Below, piece after piece: positions 7,546 through 50,139 of a stretch of DNA of 64,000 bases. A model generated the notes under the pieces. That model did no database searches and had not been told where the DNA came from. It saw only the letters and a program-made list of their open reading frames with translations. Made by a program: the position numbers and the translations under genes. Each line of letters starts with the position of its first letter. Position 1 is the stretch's first letter. The stretch is from Mesocentrotus franciscanus (taxonomy: Eukaryota; Echinodermata; Echinoidea; Camarodonta; Strongylocentrotidae), in contig CP137666.1 of NCBI GenBank assembly GCA_037976565.1, positions 9,356,592-9,420,591 on the forward strand, in the 5' to 3' direction.

Positions 7546-7611
7546 CTACTAACCATTAAATAAAAGCTCTTCTTATATCTACATTATATTATCACGATCT
7601 TTATTCAATTT
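7546..7611 (+). repeat. Degenerate L tail at array edge
   Basis: CTACTAACCATTAAATAAA and CACGATCTTTATTCAATTT align with the standard L ending but with many differences, which marks the left limit of the array. Confidence 0.7.
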
Positions 7612-26774: not shown

Positions 26775-27957
26775 TTTTGGGTTCACTGCATCACGCACAA
26801 ATCTTTCGCCTTTACTAAAGATTTCCGTGCAGAGGACCGCTATGATCGGTATATAACAATTTATTATTGCCTCGTCTTCGGATGATGCTCATTAATCATG
26901 AAAAGTAAGATATCACAATAGTTTATTTAAAACAACCAATACTCCTTGGTTTCGAATAATATATGATTATTTCCTTTCGATCAACTAAACTGTTTTATTG
27001 CACGCTTTAATTATCCGTTTTTATTAATAAATTGTTGCGACGAAAAGAAGTACTCTTTACACTCCTATAGCGCTCTTTGATTGTTTGTTCTTTCTTCCGA
27101 TAGTTTTGAAAACCTAGGGACCTTTAAACTATTTGTAAACAAAATCTGTTTTGTTCACAATGAAATTTGTTTGATAATATTCATGATTATTGCACGTGGT
27201 AATATATAAGGTTAGTAAACTTTCTTTGCATGTTTGTTGGCCTCATCCGAAGACGAGGCATAAATAAATTGTTAAATTCCGATCATAGCGGTCCTCTGCA
27301 CGGAAATCTTTAGTAAAAGGCGAAAGATTTGTGCGTGATGCAGTGAACCCACGGATACTGAACCATGATCGGGATATCTAAATGTAGATATAAGGAGAGT
27401 AGCAAGTTAATAGTTAGTAAAGCTATTGTACGTTGGGCCCACGATCTTCCATTCTAATCAAAATATTTAAATGACCATAAAGAGGTATTCATGTTAATGA
27501 ACCAATGAAAAGGTGCTTAATTATGAATTAAAGATAAAAACATAATAAAGTAATCGCCTCTTCGACCACTGTATTTAATATGTCTATTTTTATACTTTTT
27601 TGTTTATAAACAAATTCAAGATCTTTCCCCCAAAAGGGTAATTAATAATGCATGAAATTACATGTATACCTTTGCTGACGAAATTTATATTAGACAATTT
27701 TAGAGGCTTGTCGTAAGTTCGTCTCACATGGCAACTTGTATTAATCCTGTAGATCTCGAGTGTATGTCTATGCTCATTGTGCTCGGCGCCTGCGCACTGA
27801 TAGATGATTGTGTCATACTCGCTATTGTTATTTAAATATTTATAAATATGGAGAATGAGATTGCTATATATGAACTCAAGGTGAAATAGATCCACTAACC
27901 ATTGACTTACTAAACTACTTACACCTACATTTTGATAACTCGATCTGCATTCTTTAT
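26775..27957 (+). repeat. S module 10, altered head
   Basis: TTTTGGG head start and GATGATGC hairpin end, as in the other S modules that follow a MITE-bearing L. Confidence 0.92.
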
Positions 27958-28979
27958 CCGTGGGTTCACTGCATCACGCACAAATCTTTCGCCTTTTACT
28001 AAAGATTTCCGTGCAGAGGACCGCTATGATCGGTATATAACAATTTATTATTGCCTCGTTTTCGGATGAGGCTCATAAAGATGAAAAGAAAGCAAACAAA
28101 TATTTCATTACGATTTGTACACAAAGTATTACTGAGTAATTAATGCTTTGAAGCAATTTCGACCCCACCCACCCAAAAAAAAGGTACCATCAACTACTGT
28201 ATAACGTTTGCAAAGTAGCAGTTTAAATCTCAAATCTTTCGTATTATATCTTGCGGGCGTATTTCACTTCAGAATAGTTCAAAGCCTTGTCTGAAGTTTA
28301 TCTCAGCTGGCAACAGCACATGCCGACTGGGATATCATCCTTCAGATTTCGTATCCTCGTCTATGGTCAGTCGATCGGCGTCTGTGCAACTTTTAGACCG
28401 GTTTACTAACATATTCAAATTTATGAAAGTCTCTTGCCTGTAGAACCTTTATATAGTGACGAGTTATTGTATTAACCTATTACTAATGAATGAACTTCAA
28501 TACTTGGAATTCAGTCTGCATACACTACTTGTTACTATGTCGGGCAAGCCTAGGACAAGCTTTCAGATTTTCAAGGACAACCTTTCAAGAAGAAAAAAAT
28601 ATGCGTAAAATTTGAAGATTTTAGTTAACCGGTCTTTTCATGATTAGGACGTAGAACAGGTGTTCTTTATTATCATTCAAATATATGTAATTAGAATAAG
28701 AATGTCACGTTCTACGGGGTAAGTAGAGTTACTAACCATTGACTTACTAAAAATCTTTTATCTACATATTGATAACTCGATCTTTATTCAACTAGGCGTT
28801 GTGGCGTGCGCCTGTAATCCAGCTAACAGTGGAAGTTACAAACTGATTCAGCCGAGGACGCAGGTTCGAAACTGAATCGCGTCTTTCGGATGGTGACGTT
28901 AAAGGTCGGTCCCCAGACGTAAATAATCATATCTGATTGATACACGTCTGTAAAAACCCAATACACACACATTCATTAT
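27958..28979 (+). repeat. L module 8 with SINE
   Basis: Lies 4,918 bp after L module 6. The C tract is short (CCCACCCACCCAAAAAAAA). Confidence 0.93.
28791..28970 (+). mobile_element. SINE with 7SL/Alu-like head, copy 2
   Basis: Identical in length and position within L to copy 1, with the same ATTCA duplication. Confidence 0.85.
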
Positions 28980-30117
28980 CCGTGGGTTCACTGCATCACG
29001 CACAAATCTTTCGCCTTTACTAAAGATTTCCGTGCAGAGGACCGCTGTGATCGGAATTTAACAATTTATTATTGCCTCGTCTTCGGATGAGGCTCATTAA
29101 TCATGAAAAGTAAGATATCACAATAGTTTATTTAAAACAACCAATACTCCTTGGTTTCGAATAATATATGATTATTTCCTTTCGATCAACTAAACTGTTT
29201 TATTTCACGTTTTAATTATCCGTTTTTATTAGTTGCGACGAAAAGAAGTTTCTTTCTTCCGATAGATTTGAAAACCTAGGGACCTTTAAACTATTTGTAA
29301 ACAAAATCTGTTTTGTTCACAATCAAATTTGTTTGATTATATTCATGATTATTGCACGTGGTAATATATAAGGTTAGTAAACTTTCTTTGCATGTTTGTT
29401 GGCCTCATCCGAAGACGAGGCATAAATAAATTGTTAAATTCCGATCATAGCGGTCCTCTGCACGGAAATCTTTAGTAAAAGGCGAAAGATTTGTGCGTGA
29501 TGCAGTGAACCCACGGATACTGAACCATGATCGGGATATCTAAATGTAGATATAAGGAGAGTAGCAAGTTAATAGTTAGTAAAGCTATTGTACGTTGGGC
29601 CCACGATCTTCCATTCTAATCAAAATATTTAAATGACCATAAAGAGGTATTCATGTTAATGAACCAATGAAAAGGTGCTTAATTATGAATTAAAGATAAA
29701 AACATAATAAAGTAATCGCCTCTTCGACCACTGTATTTAATATGTCTATTTTTATGCTTTTTTGTTTACAAACAAATTCAAGATCTTTCCCCCAAAAGGG
29801 TAATTAATAATGCATGAAATTACATGTATACCTTTGCTGACGAAATTTATATTAGACAATTTTAGAGGCTTGTCGTAAGTTCGTCTCACATGGCAACTTG
29901 TATTAATCCTGTAGATCTCGAGTGTATGTCTATGCTCATTGTGCTCGGCGCCTGCGCACTGATAGATGATTGTGTCATACTCGCTATTGTTATTTAAATA
30001 TTTATATATGGAGAATGAGATTGCTATATATGAACTCAAGGTGAAATAGATCCACTAACCATTGACTTACTAAACTACTTACACCTACATTTTGATAACT
30101 CGATCTGCATTCTTTAT
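28980..30117 (+). repeat. S module 11, short subtype, recombinant
   Basis: Its 5' half is like S module 9, but from GAACCATGATCGGG onward it carries the variants of the MITE-linked S (CTAAATGTAG, TTCATGTTAATGAACC). This suggests an internal crossover or conversion. Confidence 0.9.
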
Positions 30118-31149
30118 CCGTGGGTTCACTGCATCACGCACAAATCTTTCGCCTTTTACTAAAGATTTCCGTGCAGAGGACCGCTATGATCGGTATATAA
30201 CAATTTATTATTGCCTCGTTTTCGGATGAGGCTCATAAAGATGAAAAGAAAGCAAACAAATATTTCATTACGATTTGTACACAAAGTATTACTGAGTAAT
30301 TAATGCTTTGAAGCAATTTCGACCCCACCCACTCCCCCCCCCCAAAAAAAAAGGTACCATCAACTACTGTATAACGTTTGCAAAGTAGCAGTTTAAATCT
30401 CAAATCTTTCGTATTATATCTTGCGGGCGTATTTCACTTCAGAATAGTTCAAAGCCTTGTCTGAAGTTTATCTCAGCTGGCAACAGCACATGCCGACTGG
30501 GATATCATCCTTCAGATTTCGTATCCTCGTCTATGGTCAGTCGATCGGCGTCTGTGCAACTTTTAGACCGGTTTACTAACATATTCAAATTTATGAAAGT
30601 CTCTTGCCTGTAGAACCTTTATATAGTGACGAGTTATTGTATTAACCTATTACTAATGAATGAACTTCAATACTTGGAATTCAGTCTGCATACACTACTT
30701 GTTACTATGTCGGGCAAGCCTAGGACAAGCTTTCAGATTTTCAAGGACAACCTTTCAAGAAGAAAAAAATATGCGTAAAATTTGAAGATTTTAGTTAACC
30801 GGTCTTTTCATGATTAGGACGTAGAACAGGTGTTCTTTATTATCATTCAAATATATGTAATTAGAATAAGAATGTCACGTTCTACGGGGTAAGTAGAGTT
30901 ACTAACCATTGACTTACTAAAAATCTTTTATCTACATATTGATAACTCGATCTTTATTCAACTAGGCGTTGTGGCGTGCGCCTGTAATCCAGCTAACAGT
31001 GGAAGTTACAAACTGATTCAGCCGAGGACGCAGGTTCGAAACTGAATCGCGTCTTTCGGATGGTGACGTTAAAGGTCGGTCCCCAGACGTAAATAATCAT
31101 ATCTGATTGATACACGTCTGTAAAAACCCAATACACACACATTCATTAT
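30118..31149 (+). repeat. L module 9 with SINE
   Basis: Follows the recombinant S, so two L+SINE modules are separated by a single S rather than by a full 4.9-kb unit. Long C tract at 30333-30343. Confidence 0.93.
30961..31140 (+). mobile_element. SINE with 7SL/Alu-like head, copy 3
   Basis: Same site, length and flanking ATTCA as copies 1 and 2. Confidence 0.85.
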
Positions 31150-32288
31150 CCGTGGGTTCACTGCATCACGCACAAATCTTTCGCCTTTTACTAAAGATTT
31201 CCGTGCAGAGGACCGCTGTGATCGGAATTTAACAATTTATTATTGCCTCGTCTTCGGATGAGGCTCATTAATCATGAAAAGTAAGATATCACAATAGTTT
31301 ATTTAAAACAACCAATACTCCTTGGTTTCGAATAATATATGATTATTTCCTTTCGATCAACTAAACTGTTTTATTTCACGTTTTAATTATCCGTTTTTAT
31401 TAGTTGCGACGAAAAGAAGTTTCTTTCTTCCGATAGATTTGAAAACCTAGGGACCTTTAAACTATTTGTAAACAAAATCTGTTTTGTTCACAATCAAATT
31501 TGTTTGATTATATTCATGATTATTGCACGTGGTAATATATAAGGTTAGTAAACTTTCTTTGCATGTTTGTTGGCCTCATCCGAAGACGAGGCATAAATAA
31601 ATTGTTAAATTCCGATCATAGCGGTCCTCTGCACGGAAATCTTTAGTAAAAGGCGAAAGATTTGTGCGTGATGCAGTGAACCCACGGATACTGAACAATG
31701 ATCGGGATATCTAGATGTAGATATAAGGAGAGAAGCAAGTTAATAGTTAGTAAAGCTATTTTACGTTGGGCCCACGTTCTTCCATTCTAATCAAAATATT
31801 TAAATGACCATAAAGAGGTATTCGTGTTAATGAATCAATGAAAAGGTGCTTAATTTTGAATTAAAGATAAAAACATAATAAATAATCGCCTCTTCGACTA
31901 CTGTATTTAATATGTCTATTTTTATGCTTTTTGTTTACAAACAAATTCAAGATCTTTCCCCCAAAAGGGTAATTAATAATGCATGAAATTACATGTATAC
32001 CTTTGCTGACGAAATTTATATTAGACAATTTTAGAGGCTTGTCGTAAGTTCGTCTCACATGGCAACTTGTATAAATCCTGTAGATCTCGAGTGTATGTCT
32101 ATGCTCATTGTGCTCGGCGCCTGCGCACTGATAGATGATTGTGTCATACTCTCTATTGTTATTTAAATATTTGTAATTATATAGAATAAGATTGCTATAT
32201 ATGAACTCATGGTGAAATAGATCCACTAACCATTGACTTACTAAACTACTTACACCTACATTTTGATAACTCGATCTGCATTCTTTAT
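31150..32288 (+). repeat. S module 12, short subtype
   Basis: Shares TTGTATAAATCCTG and GAACTCATGGTG with S modules 7 and 17. Confidence 0.92.
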
Positions 32289-33859
32289 CCGTGGGTTCAC
32301 TGCATCACGCACAAATCTTTCGCCTTTTACTAAAGATTTCCGTGCAGAGGACCGCTATGATCGGTATATAACAATTTATTATTGCCTCGTTTTCGGATGA
32401 GGCTCATAAACATGAAAAGAAAGCAAACAAATATTTCATTACGATTTTGTACACAAATTATTACTGAGTAATTAATGCTTTGAAGCAATTTCGACCCCAT
32501 CCCCCCCCGAAAAGGTACCATCAACTACTGTCTATAACGTTTGCAAAATTAGCAGTTTAAATCTCAAATCTTTCGTATTATATCTTGCGGGCGTATTTCA
32601 CTTCAGAATAGTTCAAAGCCTTGTCTGAAGTTTATCTCAGCTGGCAACAGCACATGCCGACTGGGATTTCATCCTTCAAATTTTGTAGCTTCGTCTATGG
32701 TCAGTCGATCGGCGTCTGTGCAAATTTTAGACCGGTTTACTAACATATTCAAATTTATGAAAGTCTCTTGCCTGTAGAACCTTTATATAGTGACGAGTTA
32801 TTGTATTAACCTATTACTAATGAATGAACTTCAATACTTGGAATTCAGTTTGCATACACTACTTGTTACCATGGACCTATTACGGATGGACATTCGACGT
32901 GATTCTTTCTTTGATCCAATGAGTTCCACCGCCTTCTGTTATGTGCATCTTAATGAGAACATTCAGCTGTTCTAACAATAACGACTGCTCAAGCATTATC
33001 GGTCATTGACAAGGGAGCAGTTTTCCTCTTTTGGGTTTTGTTTGGATGGTGTGCTCTGTAAGAGTGTGTCTTTTAAAAAAAGCATCCCCAATGGGGAGCA
33101 GCAAAGTGGAAAAGCAGACGATTTTGGTGATATGAAATGTATTATTACTGATTCGCACACTTTCGCACACACCCATGACCTTATAAAACAATTAGAAGGC
33201 CATGATCTTTATAAGCCCTGTGCATTGTAACTTTGGAATATTATGAGGAAATTGGAAACGGGATTTTAAATCACAACCAATCCAAATATAACCTCTATCT
33301 GGAAATATAAACGTGTTTTTCAAAATAAAATACAGTACACGGAACAACAATTTCCGATTATAAACCAGAACTGCACATCGATTTTCCATGATTTAAGCGA
33401 GTTATTATCTTCTGCGCATGATGATTAACTTGTGTAAAATCACTATCCTGATTCTGTCCCGGCTTTTTGGCGGTGGACCTCATGAGATCAAAGTGAAGAA
33501 ACATGTACGGAATGTTATTGAAACGACATTGACGGAGACAATCACAATGAATTCGTTAAGAAAACGACGAATGTCCATCCGTAATAGGTCCATGTTGTTA
33601 CTATGTCGGGCAAGCCTAGGACAAGCTTTCAGATTTTCAAGGACAACCTTTCAAGAAGAAAAAAATATGCGTAAAATTTGAAGATTTAGTTAACCGGTCT
33701 TTTAATGATTAGGACGTAGGACATGTGTTCTCTATTATCATTCAAATAGTTGTAATTAGAATAAGAATGTCACGTTCTACGGGGTAAGTAGAGTTACTAA
33801 CCATTGACTTACTAAAACTCTTTTATCTACATATTGATAACTCGATCTTTATTCATTAT
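32289..33859 (+). repeat. L module 10 with MITE
   Basis: Third MITE-bearing L; its tract reads CCCCATCCCCCCCCGAAAAGG. Confidence 0.93.
32870..33594. mobile_element. Non-autonomous DNA transposon in L, copy 3
   Basis: 725 bp, the longest copy, with TTTTAAAAAAAGCATCC where copies 1 and 2 have fewer A. Same TTGTTAC flanks. Confidence 0.9.
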
Positions 33860-35043
33860 TTTTGGGTTCACTGCATCACGCACAAATCTTTCGCCTTTTA
33901 CTAAAGATTTCCGTGCAGAGGACCGCTATGATCGGTATATAACAATTTATTATTGCCTCGTCTTCGGATGATGCTCATTAATCATGAAAAGTAAGATATC
34001 ACAATAGTTTATTTAAAACAACCAATACTCCTTGGTTTCGAATAATATATGATTATTTCCTTTCGATCAACTAAACTGTTTTATTGCACGCTTTAATTAT
34101 CCGTTTTTATTAATAAATTGTTGCGACGAAAAGAAGTACTCTTTACACTCCTATAGCGCTCTTTGATTGTTTGTTCTTTCTTCCGATAGTTTTGAAAACC
34201 TAGGGACCTTTAAACTATTTGTAAACAAAATCTGTTTTGTTCACAATGAAATTTGTTTGATAATATTCATGATTATTGCACGTGGTAATATATAAGGTTA
34301 GTAAACTTTCTTTGCATGTTTGTTGGCCTCATCCGAAGACGAGGCATAAATAAATTGTTAAATTCCGATCATAGCGGTCCTCTGCACGGAAATCTTTAGT
34401 AAAAGGCGAAAGATTTGTGCGTGATGCAGTGAACCCACGGATACTGAACCATGATCGGGATATCTAAATGTAGATATAAGGAGAGTAGCAAGTTAATAGT
34501 TAGTAAAGCTATTGTACGTTGGGCCCACGATCTTCCATTCTAATCAAAATATTTAAATGACCATAAAGAGGTATTCATGTTAATGAACCAATGAAAAGGT
34601 GCTTAATTATGAATTAAAGATAAAAACATAATAAAGTAATCGCCTCTTCGACCACTGTATTTAATATGTCTATTTTTATACTTTTTTGTTTATAAACAAA
34701 TTCAAGATCTTTCCCCCAAAAGGGTAATTAATAATGCATGAAATTACATGTATACCTTTGCTGACGAAATTTATATTAGACAATTTTAGAGGCTTGTCGT
34801 AAGTTCGTCTCACATGGCAACTTGTATTAATCCTGTAGATCTCGAGTGTATGTCTATGCTCATTGTGCTCGGCGCCTGCGCACTGATAGATGATTGTGTC
34901 ATACTCGCTATTGTTATTTAAATATTTATAAATATGGAGAATGAGATTGCTATATATGAACTCAAGGTGAAATAGATCCACTAACCATTGACTTACTAAA
35001 CTACTTACACCTACATTTTGATAACTCGATCTGCATTCTTTAT
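33860..35043 (+). repeat. S module 13, altered head
   Basis: TTTTGGG head start and GATGATGC hairpin end, following the MITE-bearing L. Confidence 0.92.
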
Positions 35044-36075
35044 CCGTGGGTTCACTGCATCACGCACAAATCTTTCGCCTTTTACTAAAGATTTCCGTGC
35101 AGAGGACCGCTATGATCGGTATATAACAATTTATTATTGCCTCGTTTTCGGATGAGGCTCATAAAGATGAAAAGAAAGCAAACAAATATTTCATTACGAT
35201 TTGTACACAAAGTATTACTGAGTAATTAATGCTTTGAAGCAATTTCGACCCCACCCACTCCCCCCCCCCAAAAAAAAAGGTACCATCAACTACTGTATAA
35301 CGTTTGCAAAGTAGCAGTTTAAATCTCAAATCTTTCGTATTATATCTTGCGGGCGTATTTCACTTCAGAATAGTTCAAAGCCTTGTCTGAAGTTTATCTC
35401 AGCTGGCAACAGCACATGCCGACTGGGATATCATCCTTCAGATTTCGTATCCTCGTCTATGGTCAGTCGATCGGCGTCTGTGCAACTTTTAGACCGGTTT
35501 ACTAACATATTCAAATTTATGAAAGTCTCTTGCCTGTAGAACCTTTATATAGTGACGAGTTATTGTATTAACCTATTACTAATGAATGAACTTCAATACT
35601 TGGAATTCAGTCTGCATACACTACTTGTTACTATGTCGGGCAAGCCTAGGACAAGCTTTCAGATTTTCAAGGACAACCTTTCAAGAAGAAAAAAATATGC
35701 GTAAAATTTGAAGATTTTAGTTAACCGGTCTTTTCATGATTAGGACGTAGAACAGGTGTTCTTTATTATCATTCAAATATATGTAATTAGAATAAGAATG
35801 TCACGTTCTACGGGGTAAGTAGAGTTACTAACCATTGACTTACTAAAAATCTTTTATCTACATATTGATAACTCGATCTTTATTCAACTAGGCGTTGTGG
35901 CGTGCGCCTGTAATCCAGCTAACAGTGGAAGTTACAAACTGATTCAGCCGAGGACGCAGGTTCGAAACTGAATCGCGTCTTTCGGATGGTGACGTTAAAG
36001 GTCGGTCCCCAGACGTAAATAATCATATCTGATTGATACACGTCTGTAAAAACCCAATACACACACATTCATTAT
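35044..36075 (+). repeat. L module 11 with SINE
   Basis: C tract at 35260-35269 followed by nine A. Confidence 0.93.
35887..36066 (+). mobile_element. SINE with 7SL/Alu-like head, copy 4
   Basis: Same site and flanks as the other copies. Confidence 0.85.
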
Positions 36076-37222
36076 CCGTGGGTTCACTGCATCACGCACA
36101 AATCTTTCGCCTTTACTAAAGATTTCCGTGCAGAGGACCGCTGTGATCGGAATTTAACAATTTATTATTGCCTCGTCTTCGGATGAGGCTCATTAATCAT
36201 GAAAAGTAAGATATCACAATAGTTTATTTAAAACAACCAATACTCCTTGGTTTCGAATAATATATGATTATTTCCATTCGATCAACTAAACTGTTTTATT
36301 TCACGTTTTAATTATCCGTTTTTATTAATAAATTGTTGCGACGAAAAGAAGTTTCTTTCTTCCGATAGATTTGAAAACCTAGGGACCTTTAAACTATTTG
36401 TTAACAAAATCTGTTTTGTTCACAATCAAATTTGTTTGATTATATTCATGATTATTGCACGTGGTAATATATAAAGTTAGTAAACTTTCTTTGCATGTTT
36501 GTTGGCCTCATCCGAAGACGAGGCATAAATAAATTGTTAAATTCCGATCATAGCGGTCCTCTGCACGGAAATCTTTAGTAAAAGGCGAAAGATTTGTGCG
36601 TGATGCAGTGAACCCACGGATACTGAACAATGATCGGGATATCTAGATGTAGATATAAGGAGAGTAGCAAGTTAATAGTTAGTAAAGCTATTTTACGTTG
36701 GGCCCACGATCTTCCATTCTAATCAAAATATTTAAATGACCATAAAGAGGTATTCGTGTTAATGAATCAATGAAAAGGTGCTTAATTATGAATTAAAGAT
36801 AAAAACATAATAAAGTAATCGCCTCTTCGACCACTGTATTTAATATGTCTATTTTTATGCTTTTTTGTTTACAAACAAATTCAAGATCTTTCCCCCAAAA
36901 GGGTAATTAATAATGCATGAAATTACATGTATACCTTTGCTGACGAAATTTATATTAGACAATTTTAGAGGCTTGTCGTAAGTTCGTCTCACATGGCAAC
37001 TTGTATTAATCCTGTAGATCTCGAGTGTATGTCTATGCTCATTGTGCTCGGCGCCTGCGCACTGATAGATGATTGTGTCATACTCTCTATTGTTATTTAA
37101 ATATTTGTAATTATATAGAATAAGATTGCTATATATGAACTCAAGGTGAAATAGATCCACTAACCATTGACTTACTAAACTACTTACACCTACATTTTGA
37201 TAACTCGATCTGCATTCTTTAT
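36076..37222 (+). repeat. S module 14, intermediate-length subtype
   Basis: Keeps AATAAATTGTTGCGACG but lacks the segment with CTCCTATAGCGCTC. Has TTGTTAACAAAATCTG, shared with the S at 48149. Confidence 0.92.
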
Positions 37223-38063
37223 CCGTGGGTTCACTGCATCACGCACAAATCTTTCGCCTTTTACTAAAGATTTCCGTGCAGAGGACCGCTATGATCGGTA
37301 TATAACAATTTATTATTGCCTCGTTTTCGGATGAGGCTCATAAAGATGAAAAGAAAGCAAACAAATATTTCATTACGATTTTGTACACAAATTATTACTG
37401 AGTAATTAATGCTTTGAAGCAATTTCGACCCCGCCCACCCCCAAAAAAAAGGTACCATCAACTACTGTATAATGTTTGCAAAGTTAGCAGTTTAAATCTC
37501 AAATCTTTCGTATTATATCTTGCGGGCGTATTTCACTTCAGAATAGTTCAAAGCCTTGTCTGAAGTTTATCTCAGCTGGCAACAGCACATGCCGACTGGG
37601 ATATCATCCTTCAGATTTCGTATCCTCGTCTATGGTCAGTCGATCGGCGTCTGTGCAACTTTTAGACCGGTTTACTAACATATTCAAATTTATGAAAGTC
37701 TCTTGCCTGTAGAACCTTTATATAGTGACGAGTTATTGTATTAACCTATTACTAATGAATGAACTTCAATACTTGGAATTCAGTCTGCATACACTACTTG
37801 TTACTATGTCGGGCAAGCCTAGGACAAGCTTTCAGATTTTCAAGGACAACCTTTCAAGAAGAAAAAAATATGCGTAAAATTTGAAGATTTTAGTTAACCG
37901 GTCTTTTAATGATTAGGACGTAGGCCAGGTGTTCTCTAGTATCATTCAAATATTTGTAATTAGAATAAGAATGTCACGTTCTACGGGGTAAGTAGAGTTA
38001 CTAACCATTGACTTACTAAAACTCTTTTATCTACATATTGATAACTCGATCTTTATTCATTAT
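37223..38063 (+). repeat. L module 12
   Basis: No insertion. Carries GTAGGCCAGGTGTTCTCTAG, a variant shared with the L modules at 49293, 52522, 56924 and 60150. Confidence 0.92.
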
Positions 38064-38178
38064 CCGTGGGTTCACTGCATCACGCACAAATCTTTCGCCT
38101 TTTACTAAAGATTTCCGTGCAGAGGACCGCTATGATCGGTATATAACAATTTATTATTGCCTCGTCTTCGGATGAGGC
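38064..38178 (+). repeat. 115-bp head, left arm (reference copy)
   Basis: Contains a stem GCACAAATCTTT paired with AAAGATTTCCGTGC around an 11-base loop, outer CTGCA/TGCAG complementarity, then CCGCTATGATCGG and the 20-base hairpin. The same sequence opens every S and L module. Confidence 0.9.
38159..38178 (+). other. C(TTCG)G hairpin, reference copy
   Basis: GCCTCGTCTTCGGATGAGGC folds into an 8-bp stem (one G-T pair) capped by TTCG with a C-G closing pair. In RNA this is the exceptionally stable cUUCGg tetraloop. Confidence 0.85.
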
Positions 38179-38529
38179 TCATTAATCATGAAAAGTAAGA
38201 TATCACAATAGTTTATTTAAAACAACCAATACTCCTTGGTTTCGAATAATATATGATTATTTCCTTTCGATCAACTAAACTGTTTTATTTCACGTTTTAA
38301 TTATCCGTTTTTATTCATAAATTGTTGCGACGAAAAGAAGTCCTCTTTACACTCTTATAGCGCTCTTTGATTGTTTGTTCTTTCTTCCGATAGTTTTGAA
38401 AACCTATAGGGACCTTTAAACTATTTGTAAACAAAATCTGTTTTGTTAACAATTAAATTTGTTTGATTATTAATGATTATTGCACGTGGTAATATATAAG
38501 GTTAGTAAACTTTCTTTGCATGTTTGTTG

Positions 38530-38644
38530 GCCTCATCCGAAGACGAGGCATAAATAAATTGGTAAATTCCGATCATAGCGGTCCTCTGCACGGAAATCTT
38601 TAGTAAAAGGCGAAAGATTTGTGCGTGATGCAGTGAACCCACGG
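38530..38644 (-). repeat. 115-bp head, inverted right arm (reference copy)
   Basis: Reverse complement of the left arm, starting GCCTCATCCGAAGACGAGGC and ending GTGAACCCACGG. It is separated from the left arm by 351 bp; present in S modules and absent from L. Confidence 0.9.
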
Positions 38645-39247
38645 ATACTGAACAATGATCGGGATATCTAGATGTAGATATAAGGAGAGTAGCAAGTTAA
38701 TAGTTAGTAAAGCTATTTTACGTTGGGCCCACGATCTTCCATTCTAATCAAAATATTTAAATGACCATAAAGAGGTATTCGTGTTAATGAATCAATGAAA
38801 AGGTGCTTAATTACGAATTAAAGATAAAAACATAATAAAGTAATCGCCTCTTCGACCACTGTATTTAATATGTCTATTTTTATGCTTTTTTGTTTACAAA
38901 CAAATTCAAGATCTTTCCCCCAAAAGGGTAATTAATAATGCATGAAATTACATGTATACCTTTGCTGACGAAATTTATATTAGACAATTTTAGAGGCTTG
39001 TCGTAAGTTCGTCTCACATGGCAACTTGTATTAATCCTGTAGATCTCGAGTGTATGTCTATGCTCATTGTGCTCGGCGCCTGCGCACTGATAGATGATTG
39101 TGTCATACTCGCTATTGTTATTTAAATATTTGTAATTATATAGAATGAGATTGCTTTATATGAACTCAAGGTGAAATAGATCCACTAACCATTGACTTAC
39201 TAAACTACTTACACCTACATTTTGATAACTCGATCTGCATTCTTTAT

Positions 39248-40431
39248 CCGTGGGTTCACTGCATCACGCACAAATCTTTCGCCTTTACTAAAGATTTCCG
39301 TGCAGAGGACCGCTATGATCGGTATATAACAATTTATTATTGCCTCGTCTTCGGATGAGGCTCATTAATCATGAAAAGTAAGATATCACAATAGTTTATT
39401 TAAAACAACCAATACTCCTTGGTTTCGAATAATATATGATTATTTCCTTTCGATCAACTAAACTGTTTTATTTCACGTTTTAATTATCCGTTTTTATTAA
39501 TAAATTGTTGCGACGAAAAGAAGTCCTCTTTACACTCCTATAGCGCTCTTTGATTGTTTGTTCTTTCTTCCGATAGTTTTGAAAACCTATAGGGACCTTT
39601 AAACTATTTGTAAACAAAATCTGTTTTGTTAACAATCAAATTTGTTTGATTATATTCATGATTATTGCACGTGGTAATATATAAGGTTAGTAAACTTTCT
39701 TTGCATGTTTGTTGGCCTCATCCGAAGACGAGGCATAAATAAATTGTTAAATTCCGATCATAGCGGTCCTCTGCACGGAAATCTTTAGTAAAGGCGAAAG
39801 ATTTGTGCGTGATGCAGTGAACCCACGGATACTGAACAATGATCGGGATATCTAGATGTAGATATAAGGAGAGTAGCAAGTTAATAGTTAGTAAAGCTAT
39901 TTTACGTTGGACCCACGATCTTCCATTCTAATCAAAATATTTAAATGACCATAAAGAGGTATTCGTGTTAATGAATCAATGAAAAGTTGCTTAATTATGA
40001 ATTAAAGATAAAAACATATTAAAGTAATCGCCTCTTCGACCACTGTATTTAATACGTCTATTTTTATGCTTTTTTGTTTACAAACAAATTCAAGATCTTT
40101 CCCCCAAAAGGGTAATTAATAATGCATGAAATTACATGTATACCTTTGCTGACGAAATTTATATTAGACAATTTTAGAGGCTTGTCGTAAGTTCGTCTCA
40201 CATGGCAACTTGTATTAATCCTGTAGATCTCGAGTGTATGTCTATGCTCATTGTGCTCGGCGCCTGCGCACTGATAGATGATTGTGTCATACTCGCTATT
40301 GTTATTTAAATATTTGTAAATATGGAGAATGAGATTGCTATATATGAACTCAAGGTGAAATAGATCCACTAACCATTGACTTACTAAACTACTTACACCT
40401 ACATTTTGATAACTCGATCTGCATTCTTTAT
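39248..40431 (+). repeat. S module 16
   Basis: Counterpart of the S at 17125: shares AAAAGTTGCTTAATTATG and AAATATGGAGAATG. Confidence 0.92.
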
Positions 40432-41270
40432 CCGTGGGTTCACTGCATCACGCACAAATCTTTCGCCTTTACTAAAGATTTCCGTGCAGAGGACCGCTAT
40501 GATCGGTATATAACAATTTATTATTGCCTCGTTTTCGGATGAGGCTCATAAACATGAAAAGAAAGCAAACAAATATTTCATTACGATTTTGTACACAAAT
40601 TATTACTGAGTAATTAATGCTTTGAAGCAATTTCGACCCCGCCCACTCCCCAAAAAAGGTACCATCAACTACTGTATAATGTTTGCAAAGTTAGCAGTTT
40701 AAATCTCAAATCTTTCGTATTATATCTTGCGGGCGTATTTCACTTCAGAATAGTTCAAAGCCTTGTCTGAAGTTTATCTCAGCTGGCAACAGCACATGCC
40801 GACTGGGATATCATCCTTCAGATTTCGTATCCTCGTCTATGGTCAGTCGATCGGCGTCTGTGCAACTTTTAGACCGGTTTACTAACATATTCAAATTTAT
40901 GAAAGTCTCTTGCCTGTAGAACCTTTATATAGTGACGAGTTATTGTATTAACCTATTACTAATGAATGAACTTCAATACTTGGAATTCAGTCTGCATACA
41001 CTACTTGTTACTATGTCGGGCAAGCCTAGGACAAGCTTTCAGATTTTCAAGGACAACCTTTCAAGAAGAAAAAAATATGCGTAAAATTTTAAGATTTTAG
41101 TTAACCGGTCTTTTCATGATTAGGACGTAGAACAGGTGTTCTTTATTATCATTCAAATAGATGTAATTAGAATAAGAATGTCACGTTCTACGGGGTAAGT
41201 AGAGTTACTAACCATTGACTTACTAAAAATCTTTTATCTACATATTGATAACTCGATCTTTATTCATTAT
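40432..41270 (+). repeat. L module 13
   Basis: Counterpart of the L at 18311; shares GTATAATGTTTGCAAAG and AAAATTTTAAGATTTTAG. Confidence 0.92.
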
Positions 41271-42408
41271 CCGTGGGTTCACTGCATCACGCACAAATCT
41301 TTCGCCTTTTACTAAAGATTTCCGTGCAGAGGACCGCTGTGATCGGAATTTAACAATTTATTATTGCCTCGTCTTCGGATGAGGCTCATTAATCATGAAA
41401 AGTAAGATATCACAATAGTTTATTTAAAACAACCAATACTCCTTGGTTTCGAATAATATATGATTATTTCCTTTCGATCAACTAAACTGTTTTATTTCAC
41501 GTTTTAATTATCCGTTTTTATTAGTTGCGACGAAAAGAAGTTTCTTTCTTCCGATAGATTTGAAAACCTAGGGACCTTTAAACTATTTGTAAACAAAATC
41601 TGTTTTGTTCACAATCAAATTTGTTTGATTATATTCATGATTATTGCACGTGGTAATATATAAAGTTAGTAAACTTTCTTTGCATGTTTGTTGGCCTCAT
41701 CCGAAGACGAGGCATAAATAAATTGTTAAATTCCGATCATAGCGGTCCTTGCACGGAAATCTTTAGTAAAAGGCGAAAGATTTGTGCGTGATGCAGTGAA
41801 CCCACGGATACTGAACAATGATCGGGATATCTAGATGTAGATATAAGGAGAGAAGCAAGTTAATAGTTAGTAAAGCTATTTTACGTTGGGCCCACGTTCT
41901 TCCATTCTAATCAAAATATTTAAATGACCATAAAGAGGTATTCGTGTTAATGAATCAATGAAAAGGTGCTTAATTTTGAATTAAAGATAAAAACATAATA
42001 AATAATCGCCTCTTCGACTACTGTATTTAATATGTCTATTTTTATGCTTTTTGTTTACAAACAAATTCAAGATCTTTCCCCCAAAAGGGTAATTAATAAT
42101 GCATGAAATTACATGTATACCTTTGCTGACGAAATTTATATTAGACAATTTTAGAGGCTTGTCGTAAGTTCGTCTCACATGGCAACTTGTATAAATCCTG
42201 TAGATCTCGAGTGTATGTCTATGCTCATTGTGCTCGGCGCCTGCGCACTGATAGATGATTGTGTCATACTCTCTATTGTTATTTAAATATTTGTAATTAT
42301 ATAGAATAAGATTGCTATATATGAACTCATGGTGAAATAGATCCACTAACCATTGACTTACTAAACTACTTACACCTACATTTTGATAACTCGATGTGCA
42401 TTCTTTAT
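41271..42408 (+). repeat. S module 17, short subtype
   Basis: Counterpart of the S at 19149. The same inverted-head position is mutated (GCGGTCCTTGCACGG), and CTCGATGTGCATTC is shared at the end. Confidence 0.92.
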
Positions 42409-43967
42409 CCGTGGGTTCACTGCATCACGCACAAATCTTTCGCCTTTACTAAAGATTTCCGTGCAGAGGACCGCTATGATCGGTATATAACAATTTATTA
42501 TTGCCTCGTTTTCGGATGAGGCTCATAAACATGAAAAGAAAGCAAACAAATATTTCATTACGATTTTGTACACAAATTATTACTGAGTAATTAATGCTTT
42601 GAAGCAATTTCGACCCCATCCCCCCCCGAAAAGGTACCATCAACTACTGTCTATAACGTTTGCAAAATTAGCAGTTTAAATCTCAAATCTTTCGTATTAT
42701 ATCTTGCGGGCGTATTTCACTTCAGAATAGTTCAAAGCCTTGTCTGAAGTTTATCTCAGCTGGCAACAGCACATGCCGACTGGGATTTCATCCTTCAAAT
42801 TTTGTAGCTTCGTCTATGGTCAGTCGATCGGCGTCTGTGCAAATTTTAGACCGGTTTACTAACATATTCAAATTTATGAAAGTCTCTTGCCTGTAGAACC
42901 TTTATATAGTGACGAGTTATTGTATTAACCTATTACTAATGAATGAACTTCAATACTTGGAATTCAGTTTGCATACACTACTTGTTACCATGGACCTATT
43001 ACGGATGGACATTCGACGTGATTCTTTCTTTGATCCAATGAGTTCCACCGCCTTCTGTTATGTGCATCTTAATGAGAACATTCAGCTGTTCTAACAATAA
43101 CGACTGCTCAAGCATTATCGGTCATTGACAAGGGAGCAGTTTTCCTCTTTTGGGTTTTGTTTGGATGGTGTGCTCTGTAAGAGTGTGTCTTTTAAAAAAA
43201 GCATCCCCAATGGGAGCAGCAAAGTGGAAAAGCAGACGATTTTGGTGATATGAAATGTATTATTACTGATTCGCACACTCGCACACACCCATGACCTTAT
43301 AAAACAATTAGAAGGCCATGATCTTTATAAGCCCTGTGCATTGTAACTTTGGAATATTATGAGAAATTGGGGAAACGGATTTAAATCACAACCAATCAAA
43401 TATAACCCTATCTGGAAATATAAACGTTTTTCAAAATAAAATACAGTACACGGAACAACAATTTCCGATTATAAACCAGAACTGCACATCGATTTTCCAT
43501 GATTTAAGCGAGTTATTATCTTCTGCATGATGATTAACTTGTGTAAAATCACTATCCTGATTCTGTCCCGGCTTTTTGGCGGTGGACCTCATGAGATCAA
43601 AGTGAAGAAACATGTACGGAATGTTATTGAAACGACATTGACGGAGACAATCACAATGAATTCGTTAAGAAAACGACGAATGTCCATCCGTAATAGGTCC
43701 ATGTTGTTACTATGTCGGGCAAGCCTAGGACAAGCTTTCAGATTTTCAAGGACAACCTTTCAAGAAGAAAAAATATGCGTAAAATTTGAAGATTTAGTTA
43801 ACCGGTCTTTTAATGATTAGGACGTAGGACATGTGTTCTCTATTATCATTCAAATAGTTGTAATTAGAATAAGAATGTCACGTTCTACGGGGTAAGTAGA
43901 GTTACTAACCATTGACTTACTAAAACTCTTTTATCTACATATTGATAACTCGATCTTTATTCATTAT
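42409..43967 (+). repeat. L module 14 with MITE
   Basis: Counterpart of the L at 20288; its insert carries several extra 1-2 base deletions. Confidence 0.93.
42989..43703. mobile_element. Non-autonomous DNA transposon in L, copy 4
   Basis: 715 bp, the most eroded copy (for example GAGAAATTGGGGAAACGG). The inverted termini and TTGTTAC flanks are intact. Confidence 0.9.
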
Positions 43968-45150
43968 TTTTGGGTTCACTGCATCACGCACAAATCTTTC
44001 GCCTTTTACTAAAGATTTCCGTGCAGAGGACCGCTATGATCGGTATATAACAATTTATTATTGCCTCGTCTTCGGATGATGCTCATTAATCATGAAAAGT
44101 AAGATATCACAATAGTTTATTTAAAACAACCAATACTCCTTGGTTTCGAATAATATATGATTATTTCCTTTCGATCAACTAAACTGTTTTATTTCACGCT
44201 TTAATTATCCGTTTTTATTAATAAATTGTTGAGACGAAAAGAAGTCCTCTTTACACTCCTATAGCGCTCTTTGATTGTTTGTTCTTTCTTCCGATAGTTT
44301 TGAAAACCTATGGACCTTTAAACTATTTGTAAACAAAATCTGTTTTGTTCACAATCAAATTTGTTTGATAATATTCATGATTATTGCACGTGGTAATATA
44401 TAAGTTAGTAAACTTTCTTTGCATGTTTGTTGGCCTCATCCGAAGACGAGGCATAAATAAATTGTTAAATTCCGATCATAGCGGTCCTCTGCACGGAAAT
44501 CTTTAGTAAAAGGCGAAAGATTTGTGCGTGATGCAGTGAACCCACGGATACTGAACCATGATCGGGATATCTAAATGTAGATATAAGGAGAGTAGCAAGT
44601 TAATAGTTAGTAAAGCTATTTTACGTTGGGCCCACGATCTTCCATTCTAATCAAAATATTTAAATGACCATAAAAAGGTATTCGTGTTAATGAATCAATG
44701 AAAAGGTGCTTAATTATGAATTAAAGATAAAAACATAATAAAGTAATCGCCTCTTCGACCACTGTATTTAATACGTCTATTTTTATGCTTTTTTGTTTAT
44801 AAACAAATTCAAGATCTTTCCCCCAAAAGGGTAATTAATAATGCATGAAATTACATGTATACCTTTGCTGACGAAATTTATATTAGACAATTTTAGAGGC
44901 TTGTCGTAAGTTCGTCTCACATGGCAACTTGTATTAATCCTGTAGATCTCGAGTGTATGTCTATGCTCATTGTGCTCGGCGCCTGCGCACTGATAGATGA
45001 TTGTGTCATACTCGCTATTGTTATTTAAATATTTATAAATATGGAGAATGAGATTGCTATATATGAACTCAAGGTGAAATAGATCCACTAACCATTGACT
45101 TACTAAACTACTTACACCTACATTTTGATAACTCGATCTGCATTCTTTAT
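43968..45150 (+). repeat. S module 18, altered head
   Basis: TTTTGGG head start and GATGATGC hairpin end, as in all S modules after a MITE-bearing L. Unlike these it has TTTCACGCTTTAATTATCC and GAAGTCCTC. Confidence 0.92.
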
Positions 45151-46171
45151 CCGTGGGTTCACTGCATCACGCACAAATCTTTCGCCTTTACTAAAGATTT
45201 CCGTGCAGAGGACCGCTATGATCGGTATATAACAATTTATTATTGCCTCGTTTTCGGATGAGGCTCATAAAGATGAAAAGAAAGCAAACAAATATTTCAT
45301 TACGATTTGTACACAAAGTATTACTGAGTAATTAATGCTTTGAAGCAATTTCGACCCCACCCACTCCCAAAAAAGGTACCATCAACTACTGTATAACGTT
45401 TGCAAAGTAGCAGTTTAAATCTCAAATCTTTCGTATTATATCTTGCGGGCGTATTTCACTTCAGAATAGTTCAAAGCCTTGTCTGAAGTTTATCTCAGCT
45501 GGCAACAGCACATGCCGACTGGGATATCATCCTTCAGATTTCGTATCCTCGTCTATGGTCAGTCGATCGGCGTCTGTGCAACTTTTAGACCGGTTTACTA
45601 ACATATTCAAATTTATGAAAGTCTCTTGCCTGTAGAACCTTTATATAGTGACGAGTTATTGTATTAACCTATTACTAATGAATGAACTTCAATACTTGGA
45701 ATTCAGTCTGCATACACTACTTGTTACTATGTCGGGCAAGCCTAGGACAAGCTTTCAGATTTTCAAGGACAACCTTTCAAGAAGAAAAAAATATGCGTAA
45801 AATTTGAAGATTTTAGTTAACCGGTCTTTTCATGATTAGGACGTAGAACAGGTGTTCTTTATTATCATTCAAATATATGTAATTAGAATAAGAATGTCAC
45901 GTTCTACGGGGTAAGTAGAGTTACTAACCATTGACTTACTAAAAATCTTTTATCTACATATTGATAACTCGATCTTTATTCAACTAGGCGTTGTGGCGTG
46001 CGCCTGTAATCCAGCTAACAGTGGAAGTTACAAACTGATTCAGCCGAGGACGCAGGTTCGAAACTGAATCGCGTCTTTCGGATGGTGACGTTAAAGGTCG
46101 GTCCCCAGACGTAAATAATCATATCTGATTGATACACGTCTGTAAAAACCCAATACACACACATTCATTAT
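45151..46171 (+). repeat. L module 15 with SINE
   Basis: Counterpart of the L at 23040. Confidence 0.93.
45983..46162 (+). mobile_element. SINE with 7SL/Alu-like head, copy 5
   Basis: Same site and flanks; last visible copy. None occurs after this point. Confidence 0.85.
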
Positions 46172-47312
46172 CCGTGGGTTCACTGCATCACGCACAAATC
46201 TTTCGCCTTTTACTAAAGATTTCCGTGCAGAGGACCGCTGTGATCGGAATTTAACAATTTATTATTGCCTCGTCTTCGGATGAGGCTCATTAATCATGAA
46301 AAGTAAGATATCACAATAGTTTATTTAAAACAACCAATACTCCTTGGTTTCGAATAATATATGATTATTTCCTTTCGATCAACTAAACTGTTTTATTTCA
46401 CGTTTTAATTATCCGTTTTTATTAGTTGCGACGAAAAGAAGTTTCTTTCTTCCGATAGATTTGAAAACCTAGGGACCTTTAAACTATTTGTAAACAAAAT
46501 CTGTTTTGTTCACAATCAAATTTGTTTGATTATATTCATGATTATTGCACGTGGTAATATATAAGGTTAGTAAACTTTCTTTGCATGTTTGTTGGCCTCA
46601 TCCGAAGACGAGGCATAAATAAATTGTTAAATTCCGATCATAGCGGTCCTCTGCACGGAAATCTTTAGTAAAAGGCGAAAGATTTGTGCGTGATGCAGTG
46701 AACCCACGGATACTGAACCATGATCGGGATATCTAAATGTAGATATAAGGAGAGTAGCAAGTTAATAGTTAGTAAAGCTATTGTACGTTGGGCCCACGAT
46801 CTTCCATTCTAATCAAAATATTTAAATGACCATAAAGAGGTATTCATGTTAATGAACCAATGAAAAGGTGCTTAATTATGAATTAAAGATAAAAACATAA
46901 TAAAGTAATCGCCTCTTCGACCACTGTATTTAATATGTCTATTTTTATGCTTTTTTGTTTACAAACAAATTCAAGATCTTTCCCCCAAAAGGGTAATTAA
47001 TAATGCATGAAATTACATGTATACCTTTGCTGACGAAATTTATATTAGACAATTTTAGAGGCTTGTCGTAAGTTCGTCTCACATGGCAACTTGTATTAAT
47101 CCTGTAGATCTCGAGTGTATGTCTATGCTCATTGTGCTCGGCGCCTGCGCACTGATAGATGATTGTGTCATACTCGCTATTGTTATTTAAATATTTGTAA
47201 TTATATAGAATGAGATTGCTATATATGAACTCAAGGTGAAATAGATCCACTAACCATTGACTTACTAAACTACTTACACCTACATTTTGATAACTCGATC
47301 TGCATTCTTTAT
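46172..47312 (+). repeat. S module 19, short subtype, recombinant
   Basis: Has the short spacer, then MITE-linked variants (CTAAATGTAG, TTCATGTTAATGAACC) like S module 11, and a standard TTTGTAATTATATAGAATG end. Confidence 0.9.
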
Positions 47313-48148
47313 CCGTGGGTTCACTGCATCACGCACAAATCTTTCGCCTTTTACTAAAGATTTCCGTGCAGAGGACCGCTATGATCGGTATATAACAATT
47401 TATTATTGCCTCGTTTTCGGATGAGGCTCATAAAGATGAAAAGAAAGCAAACAAATATTTCATTACGATTTGTACACAAAGTATTACTGAGTAATTAATG
47501 CTTTGAAGCAATTTCGACCCCACCCTCCCCCAAAAAAGGTACCATCAACTACTGTATAACGTTTGCAAAGTAGCAGTTTAAATCTCAAATCTTTCGTATT
47601 ATATCTTGCGGGCGTATTTCACTTCAGAATAGTTCAAAGCCTTGTCTGAAGTTTATCTCAGCTGGCAACAGCACATGCCGACTGGGATATCATCCTTCAG
47701 ATTTCGTATCCTCGTCTATGGTCAGTCGATCGGCGTCTGTGCAACTTTTAGACCGGTTTACTAACATATTCAAATTTATGAAAGTCTCTTGCCTGTAGAA
47801 CCTTTATATAGTGACGAGTTATTGTATTAACCTATTACTAATGAATGAACTTCAATACTTGGAATTCAGTCTGCATACACTACTTGTTACTATGTCGGGC
47901 AAGCCTAGGACAAGCTTTCAGATTTTCAAGGACAACCTTTCAAGAAGAAAAAATATGCGTAAAATTTGAAGATTTTAGTTAACCGGTCTTTTCATGATTA
48001 GGACGTAGAACAGGTGTTCTTTATTATCATTCAAATAGATGTAATTAGAATAAGAATGTCACGTTCTACGGGGTAAGTAGAGTTACTAACCATTGACTTA
48101 CTAAAAATCTTTTATCTACATATTGATAACTCGATCTTTATTCATTAT
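47313..48148 (+). repeat. L module 16
   Basis: No insertion; ATAAAGATGAAAAG and CGATTTGTACACAAAG variants as in L+SINE modules, so it is an L of that lineage without the SINE. Confidence 0.92.
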
Positions 48149-49292
48149 CCGTGGGTTCACTGCATCACGCACAAATCTTTCGCCTTTTACTAAAGATTTC
48201 CGTGCAGAGGACCGCTATGATCGGTATATAACAATTTATTATTGCCTCGTCTTCGGATGAGGCTCATTAATCATGAAAAGTAAGATATCACAATAGTTTA
48301 TTTAAAACAACCAATACTCCTTGGTTTCGAATAATATATGATTATTTCCATTCGATCAACTAAACTGTTTTATTTCACGTTTTAATTATCCGTTTTTATT
48401 AATAAATTGTTGCGACGAAAAGAAGTTTCTTTCTTCCGATAGATTTGAAAACCTAGGGACCTTTAAACTATTTGTTAACAAAATCTGTTTTGTTCACAAT
48501 CAAATTTGTTTGATTATATTCATGATTATTGCACGTGGTAATATATAAAGTTAGTAAACTTTCTTTGCATGTTTGTTGGCCTCATCCGAAGACGAGGCAT
48601 AAATAAATTGTTAAATTCCGATCATAGCGGTCCTCTGCACGGAAATCTTTAGTAAAAGGCGAAAGATTTGTGCGTGATGCAGTGAACCCACGGATACTGA
48701 ACAATGATCGGGATATCTAGATGTAGATATAAGGAGAGTAGCAAGTTAATAGTTAGTAAAGCTATTTTACGTTGGGCCCACGATCTTCCATTCTAATCAA
48801 AATATTTAAATGACCATAAAGAGGTATTCGTGTTAATGAATCAATGAAAAGGTGCTTAATTATGAATTAAAGATAAAAACATAATAAATAATCGCCTCTT
48901 CGACCACTGTATTTAATATGTCTATTTTTATGCTTTTTGTTTACAAACAAATTCAAGATCTTTCCCAAAAGGGTAATTAATAATGCATGAAATTACATGT
49001 ATACCTTTGCTGACGAAATTTATATTAGACAATTTTAGAGGCTTGTCGTAAGTTCGTCTCACATGGCAACTTGTATAAATCCTGTAGATCTCGAGTGTAT
49101 GTCTATGCTCATTGTGCTCGGCGCCTGCGCACTGATAGATGATTGTGTCATACTCTCTATTGTTATTTAAATATTTGTAATTATATAGAATAAGATTGCT
49201 ATATATGAACTCAAGGTGAAATAGATCCACTAACCATTGACTTACTAAACTACTTACACCTACATTTTGATAACTCGATCTGCATTCTTTAT
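48149..49292 (+). repeat. S module 20, intermediate-length subtype
   Basis: Close to the S at 36076 (TTTCCATTCGATCAAC, TTGTTAACAAAATCTG). Confidence 0.92.
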
Positions 49293-50139
49293 CCGTGGGT
49301 TCACTGCATCACGCACAAATCTTTCGCCTTTTACTAAAGATTTCCGTGCAGAGGACCGCTATGATCGGTATATAACAATTTATTATTGCCTCGTTTTCGG
49401 ATGAGGCTCATAAACATGAAAAGAAAGCAAACAAATATTTCATTACGATTTTGTACACAAATTATTACTGAGTAATTAATGCTTTGAAGCAATTTCGACC
49501 CCACCCACTCCCCCCCCCCCAAAAAAAGGTACCATCAACTACTGTATAATGTTTGCAAAGTTAGCAGTTTAAATCTCAAATCTTTCGTATTATATCTTGC
49601 GGGCGTATTTCACTTCAGAATAGTTCAAAGCCTTGTCTGAAGTTTATCTCAGCTGGCAACAGCACATGCCGACTGGGATATCATCCTTCAGATTTCGTAT
49701 CCTCGTCTATGGTCAGTCGATCGGCGTCTGTGCAACTTTTAGACCGGTTTACTAACATATTCAAATTTATGAAAGTCTCTTGCCTGTAGAACCTTTATAT
49801 AGTGACGAGTTATTGTATTAACCTATTACTAATGAATGAACTTCAATACTTGGAATTCAGTCTGCATACACTACTTGTTACTATGTCGGGCAAGCCTAGG
49901 ACAAGCTTTCAGATTTTCAAGGACAACCTTTCAAGAAGAAAAAATATGCGTAAAATTTTAAGATTTTAGTTAACCGGTCTTTTAATGATTAGGACGTAGG
50001 CCAGGTGTTCTCTAGTATCATTCAAATATTTGTAATTAGAATAAGAATGTCACGTTCTACGGGGTAAGTAGAGTTACTAACCATTGACTTACTAAAACTC
50101 TTTTATCTACATATTGATAACTCGATCTTTATTCATTAT
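49293..50139 (+). repeat. L module 17
   Basis: Carries the GTAGGCCAGGTG variant and an expanded C tract at 49510-49520. Confidence 0.92.

What the first reader, a model, noticed from the sequence alone, without database searches (positions are those of the whole stretch)
38064..38644. 115-bp head conserved in three contexts while module bodies have diverged
The head is nearly identical at the start of S, inverted inside S, and at the start of L. Elsewhere S and L share only faint similarity. Differences between arms cluster in the AT-rich segment before the hairpin; the first ~77 bases and the last 20 are the same. This requires selection on the head, frequent gene conversion among heads, or later spread of the head as its own unit. 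It is the best candidate here for an undescribed functional element.
Basis: partly seen in the sequence, partly recalled or inferred. Interest (0 to 1): 0.75.

Follow-up and report, generated by a model that had tools for sequence, protein, structure and literature searches.

The report
Tandem array of U5 snRNA genes
The repeated 115-letter "head" is the gene for U5, a core RNA of the splicing machinery, present here in tandem copies of a divergent form whose stems were rewritten while their pairing was kept; that explains its conservation and makes it a recognisable gene, not a new kind of element.

Summary
Every head is a U5 spliceosomal snRNA gene: 81 Rfam RF00020 matches in the window, 86 in the whole array. 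S holds a convergent U5 pair; L starts with one more. The "AT-rich segment" is the Sm-site region and the "hairpin" is U5's 3' stem-loop. Conservation around the head falls at promoter and 3'-box positions that U2 and U4 genes of this genome also show.

Selection is supported. Between duplicated blocks, head nt 1-78 have 0/2021 substitutions, bodies 115/14233. Mobile spread is not: 88 near-exact matches, none outside the array and a neighbouring cluster.

The unusual part: the genome also has at least seven dispersed, conventional U5 genes. Array U5 differs from the one compared in stem I and the 3' end, with six or seven pairs changed on both sides and pairing kept: a structure-preserving second U5 class, amplified up to twelvefold. 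Whether it is expressed or specialised (say in oocytes) cannot be told here. A one-T loss in loop I in 16 of 86 copies is unexplained and may be an assembly error.

The parts
7609..63466 (.). U5 snRNA gene array inside the window (81 genes; 5 more matches beyond the window end)
   Evidence: Rfam RF00020 above gathering score
37220..37338 (+). U5 snRNA gene at the start of the L module that precedes the finding (83.9 bits)
38061..38179 (+). U5 snRNA gene, S-unit + copy (83.4 bits)
38529..38647 (-). U5 snRNA gene, S-unit inverted copy (87.2 bits), convergent with the previous one
39245..39362 (+). next U5 copy, hybrid (L-type upstream, S-type downstream), with the one-T loop I contraction
38000..38014 (+). 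PSE-like promoter block ACTAACCATTGACTT at -61; a block of this form is at -61 in 77 of 86 copies and at -65 in one
38694..38708 (-). PSE-like promoter block of the inverted U5 copy
38096..38106 (+). U5 loop I (CGCCTTTTACT), nt 36-46
   Evidence: alignment to RF00020
38148..38159 (+). Sm-site region AATTTATTATTG (the finding's AT-rich segment)
38159..38178 (+). 3' terminal hairpin with UUCG loop
38191..38200 (+). 3'-box-like element AAAAGTAAGA
   Evidence: a 3' box in 80 of 86 array copies
38510..38519 (-). 3'-box-like element (GCAAAGAAAG) of the inverted copy

Best explanation
The head is a U5 spliceosomal snRNA gene, and the window holds most of a 59-kb tandem array of 86 such genes. Most carry an upstream PSE-like block at -61 and a 3' box and should be transcribed as independent snRNA genes (inferred). 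The RNA has the U5 fold: stem I, loop I that holds the exons, an Sm-type site and a 3' hairpin. Purifying selection on that RNA keeps the gene nearly constant in three contexts while the spacers diverge. Unequal exchange and block duplication, sometimes through the genes themselves, set copy number and mix spacer types (inferred from the duplicated blocks and hybrids). The array encodes a second U5 class, with stem I and the 3' hairpin rewritten by paired changes relative to the dispersed conventional U5 genes. Shown: identity, paired changes, promoter and 3'-box positions, slower change of heads. Inferred: transcription, Sm assembly and use in splicing.
For: 81 RF00020 matches in the window, 63.4-87.5 bits against a gathering score of 40, plus 5 beyond it, the weakest at 40.4. 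Fold: covariance-model alignments of the two genes of the finding; MFE folds of five array-class sequences, z -1.7 to -2.9. Against one dispersed copy (L009), 4 stem I pairs (3 in + copies) and 3 pairs of the 3' stem change on both sides with pairing kept; on 14 sequences slid controls give 0-1 such stem I pairs against 4. 3' box in 80 of 86 array copies, 15/15 U2 and 11/11 U4, against 2.1% of background windows; PSE core at -62 to -52 in 79 of 86 array copies, 15/15 U2, 11/11 U4 and 6/6 dispersed U5 tested, against 16%. Two disjoint duplicate block pairs: nt 1-78 0/2021, bodies 115/14233, P 5e-7. S-like unit 158 kb away: 1/78 against 115/583, P 4e-6.
Against: No expression data. The Sm-site region (AAUUUAUUAUUG or AAUUUAUUUAUG) is not an uninterrupted U-run. 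Array U5 has A-A at pair 14-63, and the + copy U-U at pair 3-80. The outer helix 3-6/77-80 comes from the Rfam consensus; it is in the MFE folds of the array copies but not in that of the one dispersed copy folded. 16 of 86 copies lack one T in loop I. At least 9 copies look damaged or cut off from their promoter. Only 4 of 6 dispersed U5 matched the 3'-box motif. A 13-base comparison of the array PSE block with seven dispersed U5 promoters was not significant (P 0.21-0.89); only the short core and its position are shared, and many U2 and U4 copies tested are near-identical neighbours, not independent.
Confidence: 0.93

Rival explanations
1. The heads are alike mainly because of gene conversion among them, with little selection.
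For: Seven copies join L-type upstream to S-type downstream across the head. Representatives of + and - contexts share nt 1-77 exactly, and B and C copies hardly vary there. Conversion from the array into the unit 158 kb away cannot be excluded.
Against: The S-like unit 158 kb away keeps one head at 77/78 while its inverted twin has 7/77 changes, lost bases and 47 bits; the twin too is closer than its body (P 0.03). Six or seven double changes kept pairing relative to a dispersed copy. + and - copies keep distinct Sm regions: AATTTATTATTG in 51 of 55 + copies, an ATTTATG ending in all 31 - copies.
Confidence: 0.15
2. The head is a mobile element (MITE or SINE, for instance a SINE with an snRNA-derived head) that spread into the array.
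For: SINEs with snRNA-derived heads are known (title seen in a reference list). SINE-like and TIR-bearing inserts exist in the array.
Against: All 88 matches of a 32-base head pattern with up to 3 mismatches lie in the array (85) or the neighbouring C1:9.203-9.206 Mb cluster (3). Promoter and 3' box are conserved around the heads.
Confidence: 0.02
3. The array is a pseudogene farm: a decayed U5 lineage amplified as satellite DNA, with the dispersed genes doing the work.
For: Loop I contractions (16 of 86), promoter-displacing inserts before 5 copies (one read in full), 5'-end and 3'-stem damage in 4 copies. At least seven dispersed conventional U5 genes.
Against: 54 of 86 copies match the consensus at all five elements checked, 66 counting loop I length variants. 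Paired changes in stems. Slower change of heads than bodies among duplicated blocks.
Confidence: 0.12

Closest known systems
U5 spliceosomal snRNA genes (Rfam RF00020)
   Same: Score, fold, loop I, Sm-region position, 3' hairpin, promoter and 3'-box placement
   Different: Stem I and 3' hairpin differ from the genome's own conventional U5 by paired changes; Sm region interrupted by A
Tandem snRNA arrays (primate U2 array, seen only as a reference title; U2-U5 arrays of fish, PMC3464664, passages read)
   Same: Tandem snRNA genes with variable spacers, PSE and 3' box; in the fish array the U5 gene (pi 0.009) varies less than spacer 1 (0.031), about as much as spacer 2 (0.010)
   Different: Only U5 was found here, in convergent pairs plus single copies, 86 copies, and divergent from the dispersed genes
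Developmentally switched snRNA isoforms (fly U5, Xenopus and sea urchin U1; PMC4291461, passages read)
   Same: Several classes of one snRNA in one genome
   Different: That paper calls mouse U5 variation confined to the 3' end; here stem I is rewritten too. Expression here is unknown

Membership tests
U5 snRNA (RF00020) | Covariance-model score above the curated cut-off | tested here: met
   81 window matches 63.4-87.5 bits against 40; 5 more in L039, the weakest at 40.4
U5 snRNA (RF00020) | Loop I on a closed 8-bp stem | tested here: met
   Helix 28-35/47-54 unchanged in 14 sequences. Loop run of full length in 70 of 86 copies, one T short in 16
U5 snRNA (RF00020) | Stem I pairing | tested here: met
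   96.3% of 322 cells paired over three helices in 14 sequences (6 dispersed, L042, 7 array)
U5 snRNA (RF00020) | Sm-protein binding site | tested here: inconclusive
   AAUUUAUU... at the right place, but not an uninterrupted U-run; binding not testable
U5 snRNA (RF00020) | snRNA-type promoter and 3' box | tested here: met
   compared with U2 and U4 of the same genome; the longer promoter comparison was not significant
U5 snRNA (RF00020) | RNA present in U5 snRNP | not testable with these tools
   No RNA data
Oocyte/embryo-type tandem snRNA array | Tandem copies distinct in sequence from dispersed copies | tested here: met
Oocyte/embryo-type tandem snRNA array | Stage-restricted expression | not testable with these tools
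   No expression data
MITE or SINE | Dispersed solo copies with target-site duplications | tested here: not met
   None of 88 pattern matches lies outside the C1 array and its neighbour cluster

The most novel reading that the evidence does not exclude
The array encodes a second, dedicated U5: same exon-holding loop, rewritten stems, up to twelve times as many genes as the conventional U5, used by a specialised snRNP in one stage or tissue (for instance oocytes). In the families examined only U5 shows such a split: two array U1 copies and one dispersed copy are nearly identical, nine full-length U2 copies are 96.8-100% identical to a tenth, and 11 of 12 U4 matches score alike. U6 was not examined.
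Probability: 0.3. Interest if true: 0.7.

Novelty: new variant of a known kind. Interest (0 to 1): 0.42.

Why it matters
A first reading without annotation found a core spliceosomal gene from its conservation pattern alone. Beyond that, two U5 classes separated by paired stem changes in one genome, one with few copies and one massively amplified, give a natural test of whether U5 isoforms make functionally distinct spliceosomes.

Tried and rejected
A parallel divergent set of all snRNAs. The U2 search showed a second score class (22 of 46 matches at 121.8-130.9 bits). Ten of these 22 were read: nine keep ordinary U2 from nt 35 or 38 on with the first part replaced, one keeps nt 1-131 followed by other sequence (the nine also). 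They are junctions or fragments, not a divergent U2. The breakpoint lies in the stretch that a paper on U2-targeting retrotransposons (PMC4640811, passages read) gives as target-like sequence; the elements themselves were not identified. U4 gave 11 matches at 122-123 bits and one at 89. U1 gave 36, 35 over the cut-off, 27 on C7. U6 was asked for once and not answered. Counts from genome searches are lower bounds, since only the best candidates are scored (47, 40).

The loop I contraction as a functional variant. Its state differs in 14 of 56 duplicate pairs (16.4 expected if independent of descent) against 6 of 505 other four-base runs. It follows neither nearest-flank descent (2 of 16, 2.8 expected, P 0.74) nor neighbourhood (P 0.56). 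One of the nine 134.5-bit U1 array copies was read and shows a one-base loss in a GGGG run. I read these as a likely assembly error or mutation hot spot, no evidence of function. In one search one of six block pairs (no mismatch, overlapping ranges) had apparently been aligned to itself; one search drops that pair. The five pairs overlap; the two do not.

The Fisher test used a body with an unrelated tail; one search leaves it out. Control (a) does not help for 'pairs with a change on both sides' (422 of 500 shuffles reach it) or 'further pair types' (499 of 500); cells with such a change and the covariation score (0 of 500) do. The array/dispersed split is one contrast, so cells are not independent events. 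The 3'-stem register was set by me from the folds. In one search array copies were searched over 46 bases for the 3' box, other genes over the first 25 start positions, background windows over 33 bases.

Naming the species: Pfam on 8 window ORFs gave one match under its cut-off; a protein search with a neighbouring exon gave one unnamed relative. A head pattern found nothing in viral contigs. Paper searches showed no such U5 class among the titles and abstract starts listed; most lists were cut to the first 8-20 papers, so this is no proof of absence. Marz 2008 and Kazmaier 1987 were seen only as references; Chen 2005 is not held.

Full report
What it is. A scan of the window against Rfam returns 81 matches above the gathering score, all RF00020, the U5 spliceosomal RNA, on both strands. 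The finding's two arms are the U5 genes at 38061-38179 (+) and 38529-38647 (-), which face each other tail to tail; + copies also start the L modules (for example 37220-37338). The window lies at C1:9356592-9420591 of an unnamed 773-Mb, 21-contig assembly, a eukaryote and probably an animal (inferred). Five more U5 matches follow within 2.8 kb of the window end and none in the next 20 kb read, so the array has 86 copies over about 59 kb. By upstream type there are 19 A (S-type +), 29 B (L-type +), 31 C (inverted), 5 D and 2 others.

The observation. In one representative of each of the three contexts nt 1-77 are identical; nt 78-97 drop to 15/20 between + and - copies; nt 98-119 are 20-21/22; bodies are 42-56% identical. 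Within contexts, diversity per site over nt 1-78 is 0.026 (A), 0 (B) and 0.0009 (C), against 0.15, 0.033 and 0.053 in the upstream bodies. The AT-rich segment is the Sm-site region: AATTTATTATTG in 51 of 55 + copies, AATTTATTTATG or a longer or variant form in the 31 - copies, with TTTA expansions in three of them (51809, 53833, 59441). The hairpin is the U5 3' stem-loop. The conserved stretches outside the head fall where snRNA genes carry control elements. A PSE-like block begins at -61 in 77 of 86 copies and at -65 in one. A short core of it is found in 79 of 86 copies, 15/15 U2, 11/11 U4 and 6/6 dispersed U5 tested, between -62 and -56, and a 3' box in 80 of 86 array copies (10-12 bases after the gene in 75), 15/15 U2, 11/11 U4 and 4/6 dispersed U5; background is 16% and 2.1% of windows. 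A longer 13-base comparison of promoter blocks was not significant.

Selection, exchange or spread. Between two disjoint pairs of duplicated blocks, heads have 8/3073 substitutions, head nt 1-78 have 0/2021 and bodies 115/14233 (P 5e-4 and 5e-7). The finding's own refutation test, equal rates in heads and bodies, is thus not met. For older time, a small cluster 158 kb away (L042) holds an S-like unit. Its first U5 differs from the array at 1/78 sites while the homologous body differs at 115/583 (P 4e-6); its inverted twin has decayed in score (47 bits) with 7/77 changes, still somewhat fewer than the body (P 0.03). Conversion from the array into that unit cannot be excluded. Exchange through heads does happen: seven copies carry L-type sequence upstream and S-type downstream, which is how runs of S without L can arise (inferred). 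Spread as an independent unit is not supported: a 32-base head pattern with up to three mismatches has 88 matches in the assembly, 85 in the array and 3 in the neighbouring cluster.

Two U5 classes. Searching the assembly with RF00020 and with a dispersed copy shows at least seven dispersed U5 genes, four on C5 and three on C3, of conventional form. Array U5 is 81-83% identical to the query over 86 alignable bases and unlike it at the 3' end. In 14 aligned sequences nt 28-66 are alike, loop I included, apart from one base in the edge copy 7609. Against the dispersed copy L009, the - copy has four stem I pairs changed on both sides with pairing kept (three in the + copy, where the fourth is U-U), and the 3' stem has three such pairs. 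On 14 sequences 96.3% of stem cells pair, with 23 cells changed on both sides against 10.3 in shuffles, and 0-1 pairs under slid controls. One pair (14-63) is lost in the array class. The outer helix 3-6/77-80 is taken from the Rfam consensus and is absent from the MFE fold of the dispersed copy. The array class is therefore best read as a U5 paralogue whose fold was kept through change, not simple decay. In the other families examined array and dispersed copies are much closer: U1 (two array copies, one dispersed), full-length U2 (nine copies against L052, 96.8-100%) and U4 (11 of 12 at equal score). U6 was not examined.

Function. The best reading is that these genes are transcribed as U5 snRNA and enter U5 snRNPs. 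Nothing here shows expression. By analogy with stage-switched snRNA isoforms (PMC4291461, passages read) the array could serve a stage with high demand, such as oocytes or embryos; that is a guess. Of the 86 copies, 54 match the consensus in all five elements checked and 12 more differ only in loop I length (the Sm region was not one of the five). Five D copies have a changed upstream, read in full for one, where a SINE-like insert lies between promoter and gene; four copies have changed 5' ends and 3' stems.

An unexplained detail. Sixteen of 86 copies lack one T in loop I. The state is discordant in 14 of 56 duplicate pairs against 6 of 505 other four-base runs, and follows neither descent nor neighbourhood. 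No other site of nt 1-80 is discordant in more than 2 of the 56 pairs, and an A/G difference at nt 72 stays with its block type in the listing (judged by eye), which speaks against simple gene conversion. Assembly error, a hot spot or real heterogeneity remain possible.

Noticed in passing
window 23156-24061 (before the U5 copy at 24062; by the same upstream end also 28977, 31147, 36073, 46169): A SINE-like insert of about 190 bp with an SRP-RNA-like start (28.9 bits, below the gathering score of 70) separates promoter and U5 gene, with a short ATTCA duplication. Read in full for one of five copies.
   Followed up: partly
window 20404-21853 (by spacing also before 26772, 33857, 43965): An insert of about 720 bp with terminal inverted repeats (DNA-transposon-like) in a long L body (one of four read); the U5 copies after such bodies have a changed 5' end and 3' stem.
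   Followed up: partly
L079-L086 and L088 (C2, C4, C5, C6, C16, C19, C21): U2 genes cut at nt 35 or 38 and joined to other upstream sequence, several sharing that sequence: perhaps 3' junctions of U2-targeted retroelements, as Keno and Utopia target U2.
   Followed up: partly
window, 16 of 86 U5 copies (e.g. 39245, 39714, 40429); L090 for U1: One-base contractions of a four-base run inside snRNA genes (U5 loop I, U1 GGGG); in the U5 array far more often than in other four-base runs. Cause unknown.
   Followed up: partly
G000 C7:10047064-10081188: A U1 array (27 of 36 U1 matches, spacing often about 1.13 kb) beside dispersed U1 genes; two array copies and one dispersed copy are nearly identical in the gene.
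   Followed up: partly
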